A stretch of 16,258 nucleotides of DNA from a bacterium. Its GTDB lineage: Bacteria > Babelota > Babeliae > Babelales > RVW-14. Positions 2,971-16,258 of the stretch are shown one piece after another. The position numbers were made by a program, and so were the translations under genes. The DNA lies in the NCBI GenBank assembly GCA_023249895.1, contig JAHFBS010000005.1:1-16258 (forward strand). The letters are read 5' to 3'. Numbering within the stretch: the stretch's first letter is position 1; each line of letters begins with the position of its first letter. The notes under the pieces are model-generated. The model saw nothing but the letters and a program-made list of their open reading frames with translations, ran no database searches and had not been told where the DNA came from.

Positions 2971-2980
2971 AGGATTGATC
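2971..2980 (+). promoter_or_regulatory. Ribosome-binding site that fixes the phospholipase start
   Basis: AGGATTGATC directly abuts ATG 2981. The AAGGA core is 6 nt from this ATG, which selects it over the in-frame TTG at 2975. The same ten bases directly precede the GTG start of the membrane protease at 13216. Confidence 0.7.
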
Positions 2981-4402
2981 ATGAGACATATATCTTTATC
3001 TGCCACACTGCTTATCACTATTTCTACCTATGCAGTACATGCAAACCAAATCACCAGAAGTGTCCCACACTACGAAGATGCCAATTTTCTGGTCAGTCGC
3101 GATAACGATTTATGCAAACTTGAACATTCAGCACTCAAACAACGCTATCCCATCGCTCACGATACACTTGAAAAATTTCTTGGTGAAAAGCTTGAGCCCC
3201 AAGCCGTTCCCACCATTGGAATCTCGTGTAGCGGCGGCGGCGTACGAGCAGCAATAGCAATGCTCGGGCTTTTACGAGGACTCGATCGTATTAATCTTTT
3301 GAATGCTGTTACCTATTGCGCAACGCTTTCTGGATCAACGTGGACCACCGCATCATGGTTTCTTCATAATCTGCCACTGCCCAAACTAACCGAATATCTT
3401 AAAGAGAAAACGAGCCATACATTTGATTCTGCATATATCGACGAAGTAGCAATCATTCAGGCGCTCTCTAACAAAAAAAAGAAGGGGCGTCTTCTGTCAG
3501 TAACGGACATCTGGGGTGGACTCGTGGCCGATTCTTTTTTAAGTACCTTTAAAGAACCAGGTCAATACTATTTACTTACCGATCTTCAACAACAAGTGCT
3601 CACTGGCGCATTCCCTATCCCTATTTTTACTGCAGTTATTGGAGAAACTGACCCTCGCTATGAGTGGGTAGAAATGACCCCTTTTTCGGTTGGAAGCACG
3701 TTTCTAAGTGCATGGATCAATCCTCATGCACTCGGCAGAAAATTTGCAAAGGGGGCCTCGTTTGATCAGGACCAAGAAGAAACACTCAGCTATGTTCTTG
3801 GAGCTGCAAGTTCTGCTTATGCCCTAAGTGGTCTTGATGTAATTAAAGCAATAAGCAAAAAGTTAGGCGTTGAATGCTGTTTCCCTTCGATAACAGAGTT
3901 CTGCGCGCCTTGCAGCAATGCACGGATAGCCAACCCGGAAATATACAACTTTGTATACGGCATTAACGGATGCCCACTTTCTGATCTTAAAAAAATAACC
4001 CTCGTTGATGCAGGATTCGCTTTTTATCACCCATTACCACCACTGCTCAGACGCCACACCGCCATCTACATCATTTGTGATGTGGCAAAAGCAAAAGAAG
4101 GAATAGGCAAGAGTCTTGCACGCGCTGCAGCATATGCTCAAGAGCACAAATATCCATTTCCACCAATCAATTACGCCGATCTTGGCAAACATCCATTGAG
4201 TGTATTTTCTGATCCTAAAAATAAAGACTGCCCCGTGGTCATCTATATTCCGAATTTGTCAGAATTTCCAACATTAAAATTTGCTTATTCTTCGGCAGAA
4301 TTTGATCAGGTTATGGGCGGCATCGAGAAGGCTATCATTGATAACACCAAACTCATTGAAGATGCTGTACGCATAAAAATCAAGCATCTAGTCGCCAAAT
4401 AA
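2981..4402 (+). CDS. Secreted cPLA2-like phospholipase (eukaryotic-type lysophospholipase/PLA2 catalytic domain)
   Basis: 473 residues. The N-terminus (about 1-21, ending AVHA before N22) is a signal peptide with a likely signal peptidase I site. The rest matches the cytosolic PLA2/fungal phospholipase B catalytic domain rather than ordinary bacterial patatins: SGGGVRA at 84-90 (oxyanion loop and the conserved Arg at 89), ATYxAxLSGSTW-like TYCATLSGSTW at 111-121 with the predicted nucleophile Ser117, EMTPFSVGS at 231-239, and VDAGFAFYHPLPPLL at 342-356 with the predicted catalytic Asp343. Known: this Ser-Asp dyad cleaves fatty acyl chains from phospholipids. Inferred: an exported enzyme acting on host or vacuole membranes. 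Oddity: Thr115 stands where the usual GLSGS/G motif has Gly. It lies alone, divergent from yebC and convergent with ruvB, overlapping ruvB by 15 nt at the 3' end. No C-terminal anchor is seen. Confidence 0.88.
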   Translation: MRHISLSATLLITISTYAVHANQITRSVPHYEDANFLVSRDNDLCKLEHSALKQRYPIAHDTLEKFLGEKLEPQAVPTIGISCSGGGVRAAIAMLGLLRGLDRINLLNAVTYCATLSGSTWTTASWFLHNLPLPKLTEYLKEKTSHTFDSAYIDEVAIIQALSNKKKKGRLLSVTDIWGGLVADSFLSTFKEPGQYYLLTDLQQQVLTGAFPIPIFTAVIGETDPRYEWVEMTPFSVGSTFLSAWINPHALGRKFAKGASFDQDQEETLSYVLGAASSAYALSGLDVIKAISKKLGVECCFPSITEFCAPCSNARIANPEIYNFVYGINGCPLSDLKKITLVDAGFAFYHPLPPLLRRHTAIYIICDVAKAKEGIGKSLARAAAYAQEHKYPFPPINYADLGKHPLSVFSDPKNKDCPVVIYIPNLSEFPTLKFAYSSAEFDQVMGGIEKAIIDNTKLIEDAVRIKIKHLVAK

Positions 4403-5725: not shown

Positions 5726-5812
5726 GCAAGGGTGGCGGAACTGGTAGACGCACTGGCCTTAGGAGCCAGCCCTCGAAAGAGGATGGGGGTTCAAGTCCCC
5801 CCTCTTGCACCA
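5726..5812 (+). tRNA. tRNA-Leu (anticodon TAG)
   Basis: A class II tRNA with a long variable arm. Acceptor GCAAGGG pairs with CTCTTGC (one G-U), anticodon stem CTGGC/GCCAG encloses CTTAGGA with anticodon TAG, the variable arm is CCTC-GAAA-GAGG, and the T arm is GGGGG-TTCAAGT-CCCCC. A73 is followed by CCA in the DNA (5810-5812). It ends 19 nt before the tig start. Confidence 0.96.
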
Positions 5813-5831
5813 GCGAAAAAAGGAGACGGGC

Positions 5832-7199
5832 ATGTGTTCGGATATCCAAACTTCTGAAGTCGGTGAATCTTTAGCGCGCTTGCTACCAACACCATTGCCC
5901 GACACAAGCGAACATGAAAATGTTCTTACGTTCACCGCAACAAAGCAATCATCGCATCTTTTACGCATTACCATTGATATCAATAAAAGCGCAGCACATG
6001 CTGTATTTTTGCAAACAGTTGAGCTTTTCAAAAATGGCCCACTTGATGGTTTTAACTTAAAACAGGCGTCAGCTGAATACATTCAAGAAATGTATACTGA
6101 AGAAATTATTGGGCACACCAAAGATTATTTTCTTCATCATCTGGTCATTGACTTTCTTATCAACGAAATTATCGCCCGCAAGATAGCGCTTGTTAATTAT
6201 CCACGTTTTGTTTCAAGCGAAAGCGCCCCTGACAAAAAACTCAGTTTTAATTTTGACGTTTCAATTGCCGATTCACTCGAACTTAAAGAATGGAAACATT
6301 TTGCCTTTAGATCACCCAAAAGGAAGCGCTACAAAGATCTTGATAAACAGGTATGTGCTTTTGTCGAAAACCGTCATGCATTGGCGCACAAACCAAACTA
6401 TGCCGTTGCAGAAGAAGATGATTGGGCTCTTTTTGACGCCACCATACTTAATAATGATTTAAAGCCCCTTCATAATGGGTGCGCTGGGTCTTTTTGGATA
6501 AAGCTCGGACACCAAGACGGAGCCGACTCGCTCTCGCGTCAGTTATTCAATAAATCCGTGGGCGATAGTTTTCAAAACTCGTCATTTCTGACCTATACGC
6601 CACGACATCAATCAGGCGATTGCGCCTATACGTTTCTCATCACTATAAAAGCGATTATCAAGGGCTCTCACTCTTCGCTTGATGTTCTTAAAATGACCTT
6701 CAAGCTCAAAAACAAATCGGATGTTCATAATAAATTGATGGAGATTTTTTCGTTCCGCAACGATATTTCGCAGCGACAAGCAATTGTTGAAGAAGTTTTT
6801 CATCTTTTACTCTCAAAACATCGCTTTGAAGTTCCTAAACACCTTATCTTGCGGCGCGAAGAGGACATCATTGCAACACTTACGCGCCAACCAGATTATC
6901 ATGTCTACAAAGCGCAACTTGATTTTCACGCATCGGTCGAAATGCTTGCTGAAAAGCAGCTCAAAGAAGAGATCATCATTGATCAAATTGCGTACAGCGA
7001 AAACATACGTACTGATATCAAAGACATAACCAATTATCTTTATCTTTTAAATAGCAAACGGCTCAAAGAATTTATCTACTTCAAACCGATTCTTGAACGC
7101 ATCGAAGAAACAAGCGCTCCTATTAATACTTCAACACTCACGCAAGCTGTCATGCGCGAGAAAACGCTTAATTTCATTATTCATTCTTTGACCAAATAA
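5832..7199 (+). CDS. tig: Divergent trigger factor (ribosome-associated chaperone)
   Basis: 455 residues, near normal trigger factor length. The three-domain plan can be followed: a ribosome-binding-type N domain at about 41-127 (LLRITIDINKSAA, then DGFNLKQAS, then EEII..YFLHHLVIDFLINEIIARKIAL), a PPIase/FKBP-like middle at about 165-275 with ..GCAGSFWIKLG.. and a TFLITIKAIIK end, and a helical C-terminal chaperone domain at 276-455 (EKQLKEEIIIDQIAYSE, and the closing REKTLNFIIHSL, which resembles the family end). Oddities: the ribosome-docking signature GFRxGKxP is degenerate (GFNLKQAS, 73-80), the FKBP GFE-type motif is not visible, and there is an N-terminal extension of some 30 residues. 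The ATG at 5832 follows AAAGGAG; an upstream TTG frame extension lies inside the tRNA and is rejected. It sits just behind tRNA-Leu and 14 nt before the next gene. Function as a nascent-chain chaperone is inferred from fold. Confidence 0.82.
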   Translation: MCSDIQTSEVGESLARLLPTPLPDTSEHENVLTFTATKQSSHLLRITIDINKSAAHAVFLQTVELFKNGPLDGFNLKQASAEYIQEMYTEEIIGHTKDYFLHHLVIDFLINEIIARKIALVNYPRFVSSESAPDKKLSFNFDVSIADSLELKEWKHFAFRSPKRKRYKDLDKQVCAFVENRHALAHKPNYAVAEEDDWALFDATILNNDLKPLHNGCAGSFWIKLGHQDGADSLSRQLFNKSVGDSFQNSSFLTYTPRHQSGDCAYTFLITIKAIIKGSHSSLDVLKMTFKLKNKSDVHNKLMEIFSFRNDISQRQAIVEEVFHLLLSKHRFEVPKHLILRREEDIIATLTRQPDYHVYKAQLDFHASVEMLAEKQLKEEIIIDQIAYSENIRTDIKDITNYLYLLNSKRLKEFIYFKPILERIEETSAPINTSTLTQAVMREKTLNFIIHSLTK

Positions 7200-7213: not shown

Positions 7214-8206
7214 ATGAAACGAATTTGGGCGGTTGCGCTTATTTTATTCGTAACCTGCAATGCGAAAAGAAATGATCAACCGGCAACACCTCCTGAACCA
7301 ATCATGGTTGGCGGGCCCGGAACAACCACGCCACGGTGGTGCATGGAGAAAGAAGGGCCTCAAGGATTTCGTGCATATTTTTCTGATGGATCAAAAGTTT
7401 ATTTTTGCACCACAGCAGATGGTAAAACGCGTTATTTGGCAAGCATTATAGACCCAACCTCTGGACTTTATCATCTCGGATTGCAAGAAAAGTCAGCCGC
7501 TATGACCATTAAGCACAGCGGACCCGAATCTATCACGTTTGAACTACCCGAACCATTTGATCCACAAGAAAAAAGCTGGGCCGCAGGCCCTTGGCTTGTT
7601 TGGGCTGATCCTGCCCAGGCGCCTCAAGGATTCGGCGCCTATTCAAACTTTTGCAAAACGCTCAAACACGGCGAAGGCTTTTTAAACGAAGGCTCCGACG
7701 GGCGGCTTTTCCTTCCCAAAGAATTTGAAAGCCGAGACACTGCCATTAAATTTTGGTACACGGCAACAGAACCGGTTATAGCCAAAGAATATAGTTTCAA
7801 AGAACTTTCTAATGGCAGGCTTGTTACATTAAAAGTTGGTTCCAAATATCTCAATCGCACTATGGTTGATGTAGCTCCTAAAAAAGGGGTGTACTACTTT
7901 ATGAAGCCCGTCAAAGAGGTACTCTCCCTGGAACCATCCTCCCAAAAGTTTGAGGTTCAATCTAACCAGACGGGGGTTTTCTTTATGCCAGAAGGCTCTA
8001 ATAAGCCAGGCACGCGCACCACGCCCGGTTTTGGCCCTTTTAAGATTGTCCCTGTAGATCAGAAGAATCCCTCACTAAAGCAGGTATATCTACAAAATGC
8101 CCTTGATCCATCAACACCACAATATGTCAAAATTGACGCCCAAGGAACCGATAACAGGGGCGCCACTTTAGAAAATGCGACCATTTTTTGCATCGAAGTT
8201 GAATAA
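7214..8206 (+). CDS. Exported protein of unknown function
   Basis: 330 residues; I do not recognise a family. The N-terminus MKRIWAVALILFVTCNA is a short signal sequence. Cleavage after CNA by signal peptidase I is likeliest; a lipoprotein at Cys15 is possible, but FVTC is a poor lipobox. The mature part is soluble-looking, rich in Gly, Pro and aromatic residues, with no further hydrophobic segment. A short motif occurs twice, GPQGFRAY (48-55) and APQGFGAY (136-143), hinting at two related beta-rich repeats, each with a nearby Cys. The ATG at 7214 has GGGAG upstream and lies 14 nt after the tig stop, so it is probably co-transcribed with tig. This association with a chaperone may be simple genome packing. 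Confidence 0.8.
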   Translation: MKRIWAVALILFVTCNAKRNDQPATPPEPIMVGGPGTTTPRWCMEKEGPQGFRAYFSDGSKVYFCTTADGKTRYLASIIDPTSGLYHLGLQEKSAAMTIKHSGPESITFELPEPFDPQEKSWAAGPWLVWADPAQAPQGFGAYSNFCKTLKHGEGFLNEGSDGRLFLPKEFESRDTAIKFWYTATEPVIAKEYSFKELSNGRLVTLKVGSKYLNRTMVDVAPKKGVYYFMKPVKEVLSLEPSSQKFEVQSNQTGVFFMPEGSNKPGTRTTPGFGPFKIVPVDQKNPSLKQVYLQNALDPSTPQYVKIDAQGTDNRGATLENATIFCIEVE

Positions 8207-11677: not shown

Positions 11678-12885
11678 CTTTTATTTTGCGCTTACGCTTC
11701 GCGCTAAGATCATTGCGCCACCACAAAATGCGCTCGCTTCTCACCACCCTTGGCATCATCATTGGGGTAGTTTCTATTATTGCAGTTATGTCGATCGGTG
11801 AAGGCGCTAAATACAAAGTCCGCAAAGAAATCGAAAAAATGGGCGCTAATTTTATTGTCGCGCTTGCAGCAAGCCCTAAAACGCTTACGCAGCGCGGCAA
11901 CATGTATTTCACGCTCAAACCTACTGATGTGCAAGCCATTCAGGACGAATGCAAAGAGATTCGTCTCATTTCACCGGCGGTTCAATATCAAGGTAAAGTC
12001 ATTACCGAAGGCGCAAATTGGCAAACAAGCATTGGTGGCGTCAATGAAGATTATTTAGAAATTCGCCAACTCAAAATGGATCGTGGCGAATTTTTTAGTG
12101 CGCAAGATATACGATCGGCAAGTAAAACGGCAACACTAGGACTCACCGTCGCCAAAGAGCTGTTTGGCGATAAAGATCCGGTTGGACACATCATTCGTAT
12201 CAAAAAAATACCGTTTAGAGTTATTGGGGTGGTGGCAGAACAAGGACGATCTCCTGATGGACGCGATATGGATGATTGCGTTTTTGTTCCTATAACAACC
12301 GCTCAACGCAAATTACTCGGCAAAACAAATTATAATGCACTTATTATGTCGGCAGCACATAAAGATCAAATGCCAATAGCATCACGCCAAGTACGTTCTA
12401 TTCTTCGTCAGAAGCATAGACTTTTGGAAACAGATGAAGATGATTTTACAATTTTTTCGCAAGATGATGCATTTCAAGCATCAGAAGCTGCAAGTTCAAT
12501 CCTCAATCTTCTGCTTATTATTATCGCGTCAATATCGCTGATTGTCGGCGGCATTGGCATTATGAATATTATGTTGGTAACGGTCAGCGAACGTACTAAA
12601 GAAATCGGTATTCGCATGGCACTGGGCGCAACCACCTACAGTATTTTGACCCAATTCATCATGGAAGCGGTAACAATCTGTTTGATTGGTGGCCTTGTTG
12701 GCGTCTTTTTTGGTGTCACAACGGCAGAAGCAGTGGGCTATCTCTTGGACTGGCCGATCGTTATTTCACAAAAATCGCTTATCATTTCGCTTGTTTCTGC
12801 AAGCTTGACGGGACTTTTCTTTGGTTACTATCCCGCACGAAAAGCATCTCTTTTGAATCCTGTTGATGCGCTGATCGAAAATTAG
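11674..12885 (+). CDS. MacB-like ABC transporter permease (MacB_PCD/FtsX)
   Basis: 403 residues. First membrane helix at about 20-42 (SLLTTLGIIIGVVSIIAVMS), then a periplasmic MacB core domain of some 220 residues, then three helices near 273-300, 331-350 and 365-385. Family marks are SERTKEIGIRMALGAT after the second helix and YPARKASLLNPVDAL at the C-terminus. Together with the ATPase and the MacA-like protein it forms a tripartite mechanotransmission-type transporter, pushing substrate from the periplasm through an outer channel without substrate crossing the inner membrane. The substrate cannot be deduced. No clear terminator follows its stop. Confidence 0.93.
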   Translation: MTFILRLRFALRSLRHHKMRSLLTTLGIIIGVVSIIAVMSIGEGAKYKVRKEIEKMGANFIVALAASPKTLTQRGNMYFTLKPTDVQAIQDECKEIRLISPAVQYQGKVITEGANWQTSIGGVNEDYLEIRQLKMDRGEFFSAQDIRSASKTATLGLTVAKELFGDKDPVGHIIRIKKIPFRVIGVVAEQGRSPDGRDMDDCVFVPITTAQRKLLGKTNYNALIMSAAHKDQMPIASRQVRSILRQKHRLLETDEDDFTIFSQDDAFQASEAASSILNLLLIIIASISLIVGGIGIMNIMLVTVSERTKEIGIRMALGATTYSILTQFIMEAVTICLIGGLVGVFFGVTTAEAVGYLLDWPIVISQKSLIISLVSASLTGLFFGYYPARKASLLNPVDALIEN

Positions 12886-13215
12886 TCACAAACAAGCTGA
12901 AACATATTCCCATCAGAATCTAAAATTGCGCATACGAAGAATGCCAGGGCAACCAGCGATTTCATCAAAGCAATGATTGAAAAAATTGCCAACAGGAAAA
13001 ATTTAGTTAAAAAAAGTTCAAAAGCATAGCGTCCGCCAACAAGCTTCAAAATATTTCCGAAATCAACGCCTCAGACTTAATTTAGAGCAACTTAAAAATT
13101 ACACGCTCGTCACAGCAAGCATTTTGACGCATGCAAGCTTGATTTATTACAAAATTTGATCATGCTTAGAGCCCTTTACAGCAACAAGTTATTGATAAAC
13201 ACAAGAGGATTGATC
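12886..13215. other. Intergenic stretch without a convincing gene
   Basis: 330 nt with no supported coding region and no clear intrinsic terminator. On the minus strand one open frame of about 62 codons ends at 12882 (overlapping the permease stop) and closes with CAILDSDGNMFQLV, which faintly resembles the end of a VOC/glyoxalase-like domain; it has no good start and could be a decayed remnant or chance. A TTGACG at 13124-13129 could be a -35 element for the next operon, with only weak -10 candidates 15-18 nt later (TATTAC, TACAAA). Confidence 0.5.
13206..13215 (+). promoter_or_regulatory. Ribosome-binding site that fixes the protease start
   Basis: AGGATTGATC directly before GTG 13216, inside AAGAGGAT. 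The earlier in-frame ATG at 13162 has no such site and would put 18 extra residues before the signal peptide. Confidence 0.65.
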
Positions 13216-14220
13216 GTGTTTAATTATTTGTTTGTAATTTTGCTCTTAACTTCAACACTATTTAATTGCAACGCCAGCATCGCCAACATTGACAGCAACC
13301 TCCATAAAAAAATCAATCGTGAATGCGTACAAAATTCCGAATTTGACCTACCACTCGTAACCCCATCAACGGAAGGCAGTGCACATACATCAGAGAGATT
13401 GATTACCGAATTATACAGCAAGAAAGACCTCGCTAAAATTTCCTTAACAGCGGCTTCTTGCCTATTGTTCATCCAAATGGCCATACTTTTGCATGAATGC
13501 GGTCATGCAGCTGCAGCAAAAATATTTGATTCCACTACCAATCCGCGCATTTATATGTGGCATAATATGTTTGAAGGAGGAACTTTAGTAGAAGACCAAT
13601 TCTTCAATCTATGCGGACTGCGTTTTAAGAAAAACATTTTAAGTAATGATTTTTCCTTTTTTACAGCGGTCACCACCAATGCTCAAAGCCCTGATAAATG
13701 GAAAAATGTTGGAATTCTTCTAGCTGGAGGAACAACTACACTCGTTCTTGGCTATTTAATCTTTACTGCTCATGCAATTTTGCAGAAATATAAAGAAACA
13801 AAAAACTTATCTCAAGCTCTCAAGTTTGGATTTGCCAATGCATTAACGCCATACAAAAACTTATTTCTAAACAAGGAGCAATCAAAGCTAGACATTGTCT
13901 TGCAATTGGCATTCATATCAATGGCTACCTTTATAATAATACAATCAACACTCTACACATATTTCCCAACATTTAGGCACGCTGATGGCTCTCGAGCATG
14001 GGGCCAAATATTTAAGGGAAAAGATCAAGAAATTTATATTCCAGATATTTCCGAACAACTCACAGGACAAAAGATATTTGGCTCAGTAATAATGGCAGGC
14101 ATCATGATTGCGCTTATTTATAAATCAGTAAAAACATATGAAAAATATTTTAACGAATCCATTCTGGATAGATCACGTGATGTTTTAGACGAAATTGAAG
14201 TTGTTCCACAAATCCAATAA
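13216..14220 (+). CDS. Membrane-embedded HExxH metalloprotease, site-2-protease (M50) type
   Basis: 334 residues from the GTG start. The N-terminus (MFNYLFVILLLTSTLFNCNASIA) is a signal peptide. A hydrophobic helix at about 76-100 carries HECGH (H93, E94, H97), the zinc-binding motif in the form typical of M50 proteases (helix, then HExxH followed by AAAAK). A second hydrophobic helix at about 164-185 carries NVGILLAGGTTTLVLGYL, comparable to the AGP-type second helix of that family. ADG at 256-258 (Asp257) is a candidate for the third zinc ligand, equivalent to the LDG motif. Further helices lie near 228-247 and 287-303. Known: M50 enzymes cut membrane proteins inside the bilayer. Inferred here from motif order only; overall sequence is divergent and the LDG-like site falls outside an obvious helix. 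No PDZ domain is seen. The MutS-like gene follows after 14 nt. Confidence 0.72.
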   Translation: MFNYLFVILLLTSTLFNCNASIANIDSNLHKKINRECVQNSEFDLPLVTPSTEGSAHTSERLITELYSKKDLAKISLTAASCLLFIQMAILLHECGHAAAAKIFDSTTNPRIYMWHNMFEGGTLVEDQFFNLCGLRFKKNILSNDFSFFTAVTTNAQSPDKWKNVGILLAGGTTTLVLGYLIFTAHAILQKYKETKNLSQALKFGFANALTPYKNLFLNKEQSKLDIVLQLAFISMATFIIIQSTLYTYFPTFRHADGSRAWGQIFKGKDQEIYIPDISEQLTGQKIFGSVIMAGIMIALIYKSVKTYEKYFNESILDRSRDVLDEIEVVPQIQ

Positions 14221-14234
14221 AGAAAAGTTATTTC

Positions 14235-16258
14235 ATGAAAAAAGGTATTATAGTTTTTATTTTTTATTTCTTGCTTGCATCGTCCACCATGACAACCGTT
14301 GCGCAAACAGTTATAGCTGAAAATTCTACTGATCCATATAATATCGCCGCGTTGTTGCATTTACCATCACTTGCAGAGGCAGAAAACAAAGAAATTGAAG
14401 AAGCACGGCAGCTTCGAGCAAAGGTGGAAGAGGTTGCGCTAAAAAACAGAACTGCAGGCACCGCCACTAAACTTCGCAATATCCCAACGCTGGGCCAAAT
14501 AGAAATGCTTAGGCTTTGTTATAATTTGTTCTCAAAAGCCGATAAAAATAGTTCCCAAGACCTTGATGAATCCCTGTTCAGTAAAGAAGTTTTTGGGGAT
14601 CTGGAGATATTTTGTGGTGGTAGCAAAAATTCGATTGATATGCATCTTGCAAAAGTTACCGACCAAACCCAAACGTGCTTTGGCAAGGTTTATTGGCAAT
14701 CAATGTTTACCAGAAAATATAAAGATATAACCTCACATATAACTACGGTAAAACGTAGGCAACAAATCATAAAATATCTCGTCGAAAATGAAAAATTATT
14801 CAATGAAATCGAAACGCAGTTGAATATTATCAAAGCAAATAGCCAATATCTTCTATGGTTTAATAAGGGGTTGAGCGCCTTTGAAAAAGACTCAGCAATG
14901 TCGGCTTATTGGCAGAAGTTTGAAAACTTTAACCAAAGCGAAACCATGCTTGGGCTTGGCGCAAGATGGTACCTTCTCCCATACGTGGTGTCGTCACCTC
15001 TCATCGCCACACTATCATCAGCTCACTTCCTCATGGCCAAGGAGGTTAAGGTGTTTTTAAAGAGTTCTGGTATCATGGCGCTCATCTTCTTATTAAGTCA
15101 ACTCACCATAGACGTACTTACAGGGTTTCCACTCTATAATCAAATTGTGACATCTGAGAGACACTGCTCCAAATATGCATATGGTTCTGCAAATTTTGTT
15201 TTCGCACTTGATAAGTTGGGGCAGGTGATTGGTGAAGATCAAAAAATTAAATCGCTTTTCCCACGCGGAGCATTACTACAGAAAGCAACTAATGGTACTT
15301 CTTCGGCAAAATTAACCGCACTCATACAAAAATTTAAATCAGACTCATTTAAAGCAAAGCCATCTTTTTTTTCTGATAAAGGTCGCGTTCTCTGGTGTTT
15401 TAAAACATTACAAGAAGTTCATGCGGAACTTGGAGATGCTTTAGTGGCGCTCGGGCAACTTGATGCGTACATGGGCATAGCAAGGCTTTACAAAAAATAC
15501 GCAGCTCGTTCAAATGCCAGAATATGTTTTACAGAGTTTAAACAATCAAACACGCCCTATGTATGCGCCAAAGATTTTTGGTACCCAATGCTGGACCTTG
15601 TCCTCAAACCTGAAGAAATTGTAACCAATAACCTAGAGCTTGGAACTGACATTCTTGGTCATAACATGATCTTAACTGGTCCAAATGCTGCCGGTAAATC
15701 TGTATCGTTAAAGGGAATAATGTGCAACATTATTTTCTCTCATATATTTGGAATTGCTTTTGCATCAAAGTTTGTTGTTACACCTTTTGCAAAAATTAGA
15801 AGCCACTTAAACATTGCAGATGATGCCATCAGCGGTGAATCTTTATTCAAGGCTGAAAAAAACCGTGCTCGGGATTTTTTGAATGAAGCCAAAAACTTAG
15901 GACAACAATCCGGTGATTTCAAACGTTTTAATTTTGTAATCATGGATGAGATGTTCTCAAGCACAAATCCTGCAGAAGGTGAAGCAGCTGCATTTGCTAT
16001 AACCAAGAACCTTGTAAATTTACCGCATTGCATGTGCTTGTTCGCAACGCACTTCAGTAAAATGAAGCAGCTTGAGTCTTTAACTAATGGGTACTTTAGG
16101 AATTACAAAGTTTGGGTCAATGTAGATGCAGATGGAAATATTAAAAGTCCATTCAAAATAATGCCTGGAGTATCACATCAAAGCGTCGCGATAAAACTGA
16201 TGCAAGGGGAATTTGATACAGAAATTATAAATGATGCTTATAACGCGCTGATTGAGCA
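14235..16258 (+). CDS. Membrane-associated MutS-family ATPase with signal sequence, 3' end outside window
   Basis: An uninterrupted frame from ATG 14235 to the right edge (674 codons). Residues 1-29 form a signal sequence or anchor (KKGIIVFIFYFLLASS, then VAQ or VIA before possible cleavage). A charged helical stretch (about 45-80) follows. The MutS core begins near 120: GDLEIF at 121-126, then TDQTQTCFGK and VKRRQQIIKYL, which match the MutS lever/connector start (LEIF, T..G..L, I..RQ..V). Two hydrophobic segments interrupt the core at about 245-268 and 278-295. The ATPase domain has Walker A GPNAAGKS (482-489), Walker B VIMDE (D571, E572), and FATH with H606. There is no room for the MutS mismatch-recognition domain (about 100 residues of other sequence precede the core). 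Known: MutS ATPases act on DNA in the cytoplasm; membrane versions are poorly characterised. Not a mismatch repair MutS. Only a weak AAAG precedes the start. Confidence 0.8.
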   Translation, partial: MKKGIIVFIFYFLLASSTMTTVAQTVIAENSTDPYNIAALLHLPSLAEAENKEIEEARQLRAKVEEVALKNRTAGTATKLRNIPTLGQIEMLRLCYNLFSKADKNSSQDLDESLFSKEVFGDLEIFCGGSKNSIDMHLAKVTDQTQTCFGKVYWQSMFTRKYKDITSHITTVKRRQQIIKYLVENEKLFNEIETQLNIIKANSQYLLWFNKGLSAFEKDSAMSAYWQKFENFNQSETMLGLGARWYLLPYVVSSPLIATLSSAHFLMAKEVKVFLKSSGIMALIFLLSQLTIDVLTGFPLYNQIVTSERHCSKYAYGSANFVFALDKLGQVIGEDQKIKSLFPRGALLQKATNGTSSAKLTALIQKFKSDSFKAKPSFFSDKGRVLWCFKTLQEVHAELGDALVALGQLDAYMGIARLYKKYAARSNARICFTEFKQSNTPYVCAKDFWYPMLDLVLKPEEIVTNNLELGTDILGHNMILTGPNAAGKSVSLKGIMCNIIFSHIFGIAFASKFVVTPFAKIRSHLNIADDAISGESLFKAEKNRARDFLNEAKNLGQQSGDFKRFNFVIMDEMFSSTNPAEGEAAAFAITKNLVNLPHCMCLFATHFSKMKQLESLTNGYFRNYKVWVNVDADGNIKSPFKIMPGVSHQSVAIKLMQGEFDTEIINDAYNALIE

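What the first reader, a model, noticed from the sequence alone, without database searches (positions are those of the whole stretch)
13216..16258. Two-gene cassette: exported/membrane HExxH protease plus membrane MutS-like ATPase
An S2P-type metalloprotease and a MutS-family ATPase, both with N-terminal signal sequences and internal hydrophobic segments, lie 14 nt apart on the same strand. I know of no described system that pairs these. The shared envelope targeting and close spacing suggest that the proteins act together, for example a membrane ATPase remodelling or presenting a target that the protease cuts. It may continue to the right of the window.
Basis: partly seen in the sequence, partly recalled or inferred. 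Interest (0 to 1): 0.8.

Follow-up and report, generated by a model that had tools for sequence, protein, structure and literature searches.

The report
Exported MutS8-like ATPase beside membrane protease
In a bacterium of a group that lives inside protists, a gene for a membrane-type protease sits next to a gene of a family often labelled DNA repair that looks instead like an exported membrane ATPase, of a kind also found in giant viruses.

Summary
The window is a whole contig of a Dependentiae (TM6) draft. An M50/S2P-type protease (13216-14220) lies 14 nt before a MutS-core ATPase (14235-16256, open at the contig end). The pair is lineage-specific: the protease is in 3 of 101 phylum genomes.

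The larger finding is the ATPase. Its family is in 85 of 101 Dependentiae genomes. 54 of 57 complete members have a signal-like N-terminus, against 1 of 20 MutS1 proteins. It keeps the MutS lever and ATPase parts, lacks mismatch domain I and DNA clamp IV, and has a hydrophobic insert between the lever halves. Its best viral structural matches include a giant-virus protein named MutS subfamily 8. All 49 genomes searched carry TLC (ATP/ADP translocase) genes, so host ATP probably crosses the periplasm.

Best reading: an exported, membrane-anchored MutS8-type ATPase run on host ATP, not mismatch repair, joined in one lineage to an intramembrane protease. Location, fuel and partnership are inferred.

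The parts
13216..14220 (+). M50/site-2-protease-like membrane metalloprotease, 334 aa from the GTG (frame open upstream to TTG 13156)
13492..13506 (+). HECGH zinc-site motif (residues 93-97)
   Evidence: sequence; H93, E94, G96, H97 invariant in 7 of 7 rows of A2
13984..13986 (+). Asp257 of the invariant ADG motif, candidate third zinc ligand
   Evidence: A256, D257, G258 invariant in 7 of 7 rows; role as ligand recalled from the M50 family, not shown here
14221..14234 (+). 14-nt gap between the two genes
   Evidence: sequence; 17 nt in G001; no + strand terminator-like site in 12880-14300
14235..16256 (+). MutS-core ATPase, 674 aa seen, open at the contig end
14235..14303 (+). signal-peptide-like N-terminus (residues 1-23)
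   Evidence: positive start then hydrophobic 12-mer of mean 2.82; own heuristic, no signal-peptide predictor available
14517..14936 (+). first half of the MutS domain III (lever) region, about residues 95-234
   Evidence: hhalign to MutS1, confident over about residues 116-212; PF05192 in relatives, not in the window protein itself
14937..15134 (+). hydrophobic insert (about residues 235-300), between the lever halves where MutS1 has clamp domain IV
   Evidence: lies between the two confidently aligned blocks; residue-level alignment there is unreliable; hydrophobic segments
15135..15503 (+). second half of the lever region, about residues 301-423
   Evidence: model helices H299-334 and H382-423; hhalign confident only from about residue 405
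15666..16247 (+). MutS domain V, ATPase, residues 478-671
   Evidence: PF00488
15678..15701 (+). Walker A GPNAAGKS, residues 482-489
   Evidence: GPNxxGK[ST] in 26 of 26 rows (window and P0008-P0032); Walker B D571, E572 and H606 invariant in A1

Best explanation
A two-gene, lineage-specific unit in a Dependentiae bacterium: an S2P-type metalloprotease and an exported, membrane-anchored ATPase of the MutS8 type. Steps with support: (1) the ATPase keeps the MutS lever and ATPase parts but has no detectable mismatch domain I and no DNA clamp IV; a hydrophobic segment or hairpin lies between the lever halves, where the clamp would be. (2) It carries a signal-like N-terminus, like nearly all its many paralogues. 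Inferred steps: (3) both lever halves and the ATPase domain lie outside the bacterial cytoplasm, on the outer face of the inner membrane or beyond it, towards the host. (4) It runs on host ATP, which should be present in the periplasm because inner-membrane translocases import it. (5) ATP-driven closing of a MutS-like dimer acts on a membrane or a protein at a membrane, as MutS clamps DNA. (6) In this lineage the protease cuts the membrane segment of the ATPase, or of something the ATPase holds, to release or limit it.
For: Domains: neither PF01624 (I) nor PF05190 (IV) appears in 16 family proteins scanned (window, nine, six) or in the precomputed domains of the 77 proteins P0008-P0084; the MutS1 control P0088 shows all five MutS domains. 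In P0024 one MutS_III match runs 102-449, profile 2-194, across a hydrophobic segment at 237-255. Profile alignment to MutS1 is confident over about residues 116-212 and 405-674, the insert lying between. Model pTM 0.80, MutS fold over residues 109-674. Export: 54 of 57 complete family members pass the hydrophobic N-terminus rule, 1 of 20 MutS1 controls, 162 of 314 other ORFs of the same loci (Fisher p 4e-11). Family in 85 of 101 genomes. Host ATP: TLC in 49 of 49 genomes, 0 of 14 controls; a published Dependentiae genome encodes an ADP/ATP antiporter (PMC6561590, passages). Kinship: relatives with the insert but no signal form one clade with the signal-bearing ones, apart from MutS1 and MutS2 (100/99); giant-virus hits in BFVD. 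Cardinium MutS8 proteins carry signal peptides (PMC5698495). Pair: 4 of 4 shared contigs.
Against: Charge counts around the insert do not fix the topology. Two clear hydrophobic segments are found in only 13 of 26 signal-bearing rows (25 of 26 have at least one). 52% of other ORFs pass the same loose N-terminus rule, so it is not specific. The Amoebophilus MutS8 homologues are reported to lack signal peptides, so export is not general in the subfamily. TLC was in all genomes searched, also in those without the family, so it does not discriminate. 16 of 101 genomes show only the MutS1 level. No experiment places the protein. Seven family rows lack a Walker A match. Nothing but gene order links protease and ATPase, and P0011 has no matching protease.
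Confidence: 0.5

Rival explanations
1. Inner-membrane protein with a cytoplasmic ATPase. The N-terminal segment is an uncleaved anchor or the insert spans the membrane an odd number of times, so the ATPase uses ordinary bacterial ATP.
For: Walker A is kept in 26 of 26 rows; the charge pattern does not exclude it; only one strong hydrophobic segment is seen in about half of the rows.
Against: The MutS fold needs both lever halves on the side of the ATPase domain (inferred), and a signal-like N-terminus puts the first half outside. The positive start and a small residue before Gln in the window and three orthologues (read by eye; not in P0011) would fit a cleaved signal.
Confidence: 0.25
2. Incidental neighbours. 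Protease and ATPase are two unrelated exported factors that happen to be inherited together in one lineage.
For: The family lives without the protease in nearly all genomes; two distant protease homologues lie away from listed family members; P0011 has no protease of matching contig length.
Against: Pair kept at 14-17 nt while the left flank differs between the window and G001; 4 of 4 shared contigs in the close orthologues.
Confidence: 0.3
3. A secreted DNA-acting MutS that manipulates host DNA, as proposed for the Cardinium MutS8 proteins.
For: Published proposal (PMC5698495, section 13 read); MutS ancestry.
Against: The domains that contact DNA in MutS (I and IV, recalled) are not detected, and a hydrophobic insert lies where IV would be.
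Confidence: 0.08

Closest known systems
MutS subfamily 8 (giant viruses; Cardinium, Amoebophilus)
   Same: MutS_V ATPase without domain I; among the three best BFVD matches are Yasminevirus and Tetraselmis virus 1 'MutS subfamily 8' (E 5.2e-18, TMt 0.67), the third has no name; Cardinium members carry signal peptides
   Different: Dependentiae members have signal-like N-termini, the 52 relatives P0033-P0084 do not and Amoebophilus ones are reported not to; large paralogue expansion; the passages seen here treat MutS7/8 as DNA repair or DNA-interacting and mention no membrane insert
MutS1 / MSH mismatch repair proteins
   Different: No domain I or IV found; signal-like N-terminus; a separate MutS1 was fetched from each of 20 genomes, the window's own included
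MutS-like with N-terminal membrane segments (P0086 type)
   Same: MutS III + V with hydrophobic segments
   Different: Hydrophobic segments also lie at residues 28-65; separate clade, 100/99
KamC reactivase ATPase (NCBIfam NF052383)
   Same: MutS-type ATPase named for acting on an enzyme, E 2.2e-19
   Different: Score 69.7 far below its cut-off of 300; not a member
Site-2 proteases (RseP, SpoIVFB, mjS2P)
   Same: HExGH, ADG, M50 Pfam match, best structural rows
   Different: No sequence relative among solved structures at E <= 1; no PDZ domain listed by Pfam at E <= 1

Membership tests
M50 / site-2 protease | Pfam Peptidase_M50 above gathering score | tested here: met
   28.3 against 27.2 bits in the window protein; the P0006 orthologue scores 20.1 and the G001 one 23.2, both below it
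M50 / site-2 protease | HExxH and a later Asp, conserved | tested here: met
   H93, E94, H97, D257 invariant in 7 of 7 rows
M50 / site-2 protease | S2P fold | tested here: inconclusive
M50 / site-2 protease | Intramembrane proteolysis | not testable with these tools
   needs an assay
MutS8 | MutS_V ATPase with intact Walker A | tested here: met
MutS8 | Closest relatives are giant-virus MutS8 | tested here: inconclusive
   BFVD ranks 1-3 are Yasminevirus, an unnamed entry and Tetraselmis virus MutS8, by structure only; no named MutS8 sequence was put in the tree; origin of P0033-P0084 not shown (searches found nothing)
MutS8 | Criteria of Ogata et al. 2011 | not tested
   paper not held
MutS1 mismatch repair | Mismatch domain I (PF01624) | tested here: not met
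   absent at E <= 1; present in MutS1 control P0088
MutS1 mismatch repair | Clamp domain IV (PF05190) | tested here: not met
   absent at E <= 1; present in P0088
Secreted host-acting effector | Signal peptide | tested here: met
   own heuristic only, 54 of 57 in the family against a baseline of 162 of 314
Secreted host-acting effector | Delivery to the host | not testable with these tools
   needs localisation in infected protists

The most novel reading that the evidence does not exclude
MutS8 is not a DNA-repair family but a family of membrane-embedded ATPases that act in or towards the cytosol of a host cell. Giant viruses make them there directly; intracellular bacteria (Dependentiae, Cardinium) export them, power them with host ATP, and in Dependentiae expand them into large paralogous sets. 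A MutS clamp has thus been turned from DNA to membranes, and in one lineage an intramembrane protease has been added to release or trim it.
Probability: 0.3. Interest if true: 0.85.

Novelty: new variant of a known kind. Interest (0 to 1): 0.62.

Why it matters
If right, a gene family that is treated as mismatch repair in giant viruses and in intracellular bacteria would be a membrane machine used on the host side, and the idea that giant viruses keep MutS8 to guard large genomes would need a new look. It would also show ATPases working outside the bacterial cytoplasm on host ATP, which is not expected in free-living bacteria. The claim is directly testable by topology and localisation.

Tried and rejected
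Ogata 2011 (MutS7/8) is not held. Positive-inside test on the insert: inconclusive (loop K+R 299 and D+E 247 over 2275 residues, flanks 155 and 121 over 1200; 40 of 54 rows used, those with two segments of at least 1.0). My Walker B pattern matched no row and was a bad pattern; the DE pair was read from A1. The MutS1 control for hydrophobic segments (2 of 20) used a window set from Walker A, not the same cut as for the family. Four scans of viral contigs for the no-signal relatives found nothing; A1 found six weak loci (22-25% identity), not pursued. Plasmids and phages gave only partial MutS-domain matches, none covering 80% of the query. The profile search with A4 was swamped by ordinary MutS and MSH proteins. 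In the first tree (70 rows) I had labelled P0119 and P0120 viral-like; they fall with P0086, so the label was wrong and was changed, where long-branch rows were left out and others thinned (41 of 70 rows kept); the corresponding clade of 54 rows had SH-aLRT 98, with one Dependentiae row (fam_L036_7) placed outside the two signal-bearing groups. PHROGs gave two families of unknown function over domain V. The anti-phage library gave only a weak AbiLi match over the P-loop (E 0.00056); rejected. A Walker A pattern scan of signal-like ORFs gave 9 of 148, mostly chance by eye; two were scanned and had no Pfam match. Promoter and terminator scans were at shuffle level. P0002 and P0003 contigs are short and may hold only a fragment of the ATPase; not counted either way. 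Papers: in the listings of searches and the passages read (the terms asked for were not in that paper) I saw no account of a MutS/site-2 protease pair or a membrane MutS8. Several listings showed only the top of many papers (10 of 134, 15 of 4,550, 15 of 398), and the library is incomplete, so this is no proof of absence from print.

Full report
What the window is. The window is the complete contig C118 of a 0.91-Mb draft in 142 contigs, 79% complete.

Is it a cassette? In G001 the pair is kept with a 17-nt gap, and of 15 window ORFs against 16 ORFs of the 18-kb G001 locus only these two match; the right flank of the window is missing. Two further pairs share a metagenome contig, judged by equal contig length and source (P0005/P0009, 3824 nt; P0006/P0010, 14566 nt): 4 of 4 where both can be seen. 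P0002 and P0003 cannot be judged. P0011, the next ATPase orthologue (59%), has no protease hit of its contig length. Outside this group the protease is rare: 3 of 101 phylum genomes, one of them weak, and neither the second G001 copy nor the G074 homologue adjoins a listed ATPase of this family. The ATPase family needs no such partner: among 220 neighbours within three genes of family members, the protease occurs only in the window and G001. Other M50 proteins are common in the group (47 of 49 genomes over the Pfam cut-off).

Kinship beyond the phylum. Of the 82 proteins found, P0033-P0084 (52 rows, 536-725 aa) lack the signal (0 of 52); 50 of 50 assessed rows have at least one hydrophobic segment in the same place, 22 have two (P0083 and one row without a Walker A match left out). 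In a 41-row tree ten of them join 18 signal-bearing rows in one clade (100/99) apart from MutS1, MutS2 and a type with N-terminal membrane segments; branches are long and letter make-up differs, so this is support, not proof. In the viral structure library the best matches are Yasminevirus, an unnamed entry and Tetraselmis virus 1 'MutS subfamily 8' (E 1.6e-23 to 5.2e-18), ahead of that virus's MutS7 (1.7e-16). MutS7/8 are described as hallmark genes of giant viruses with a suggested genome-integrity role (PMC3749498, passages). Cardinium MutS8 proteins are reported to have signal peptides, while the Amoebophilus homologues are reported to lack them, and they were proposed as DNA-interacting host-manipulation candidates (PMC5698495, passages and section 13). 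That P0033-P0084 are viral is my inference; scans of viral contigs did not show it.

How it may work. Both lever halves and the ATPase must be on one side of a membrane for the MutS fold to form. With a cleaved signal that side is outside the cytoplasm. ATP there is plausible, because all 49 genomes searched carry TLC-family genes (0 of 14 controls); the family's role as ATP/ADP translocase is recalled, and some members may carry other nucleotides. A MutS-type dimer that clamps through a membrane insert in place of the DNA clamp would couple ATP binding to a membrane or membrane-protein event. The protease, an intramembrane type, could cut the membrane segment of the ATPase or of its client. 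Shown: genes, domains, conservation, distribution. Inferred: location, energy source, target, partnership. The charge pattern did not settle the topology.

Verdict. The pairing is real but lineage-specific. The more important point is that this MutS-type gene, whose relatives are sometimes named mismatch repair (P0026, P0027, P0032), belongs to a widespread, probably exported family with a hydrophobic insert where the DNA clamp would be.

Noticed in passing
window 2975-4402: Protein with a PLA2_B (lysophospholipase catalytic) domain, E 2.5e-21, with a signal-like N-terminus by eye; possibly exported.
   Followed up: no
window 5805-7199: Divergent trigger-factor-like protein (PF05698, E 1.4e-6), followed by a signal-bearing protein (7214-8206) without any Pfam match.
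   Followed up: no
L077 1146-2177 and 2234-3838: G074: distant M50 homologue (HEFGH) set off from a signal-bearing ORF by a stop, convergent with a P-loop NTPase with a signal-like start (KAP_NTPase 21.6 bits over cut-off 20): a second M50 protease beside a possibly exported ATPase.
   Followed up: partly
L038 9280-10274: G001: distant M50 homologue preceded by a 64-aa signal-bearing ORF with a stop between, the same arrangement as in G074.
   Followed up: partly
G000:C103, G001:C12, G004:C11, G005:C7, G033:C24, G038:C23: Neighbouring short M50 matches in frames of about 210-500 aa, suggesting tandem small proteases.
   Followed up: no
G081:C12, G014:C11 (L073), G077:C12: Tandem runs of three or four MutS-like family genes.
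   Followed up: no
L061 6717-8849, L053 3737-5338, L067 10344-12176, L045 11539-12843: Family members without a Walker A match lying beside ones that have it; possible inactive partners of a heterodimer.
   Followed up: partly
L072, L073, L074, L068, L061: A small membrane protein starting M..Y/F..HL (YdjM, PF04307 in L072; the others by eye) recurs near MutS-like family genes in two families; may be shared synteny.
   Followed up: partly
L051 6895-8298: TLC-family (ATP/ADP translocase) gene directly upstream (54 nt) of a MutS-like family gene in G027.
   Followed up: no
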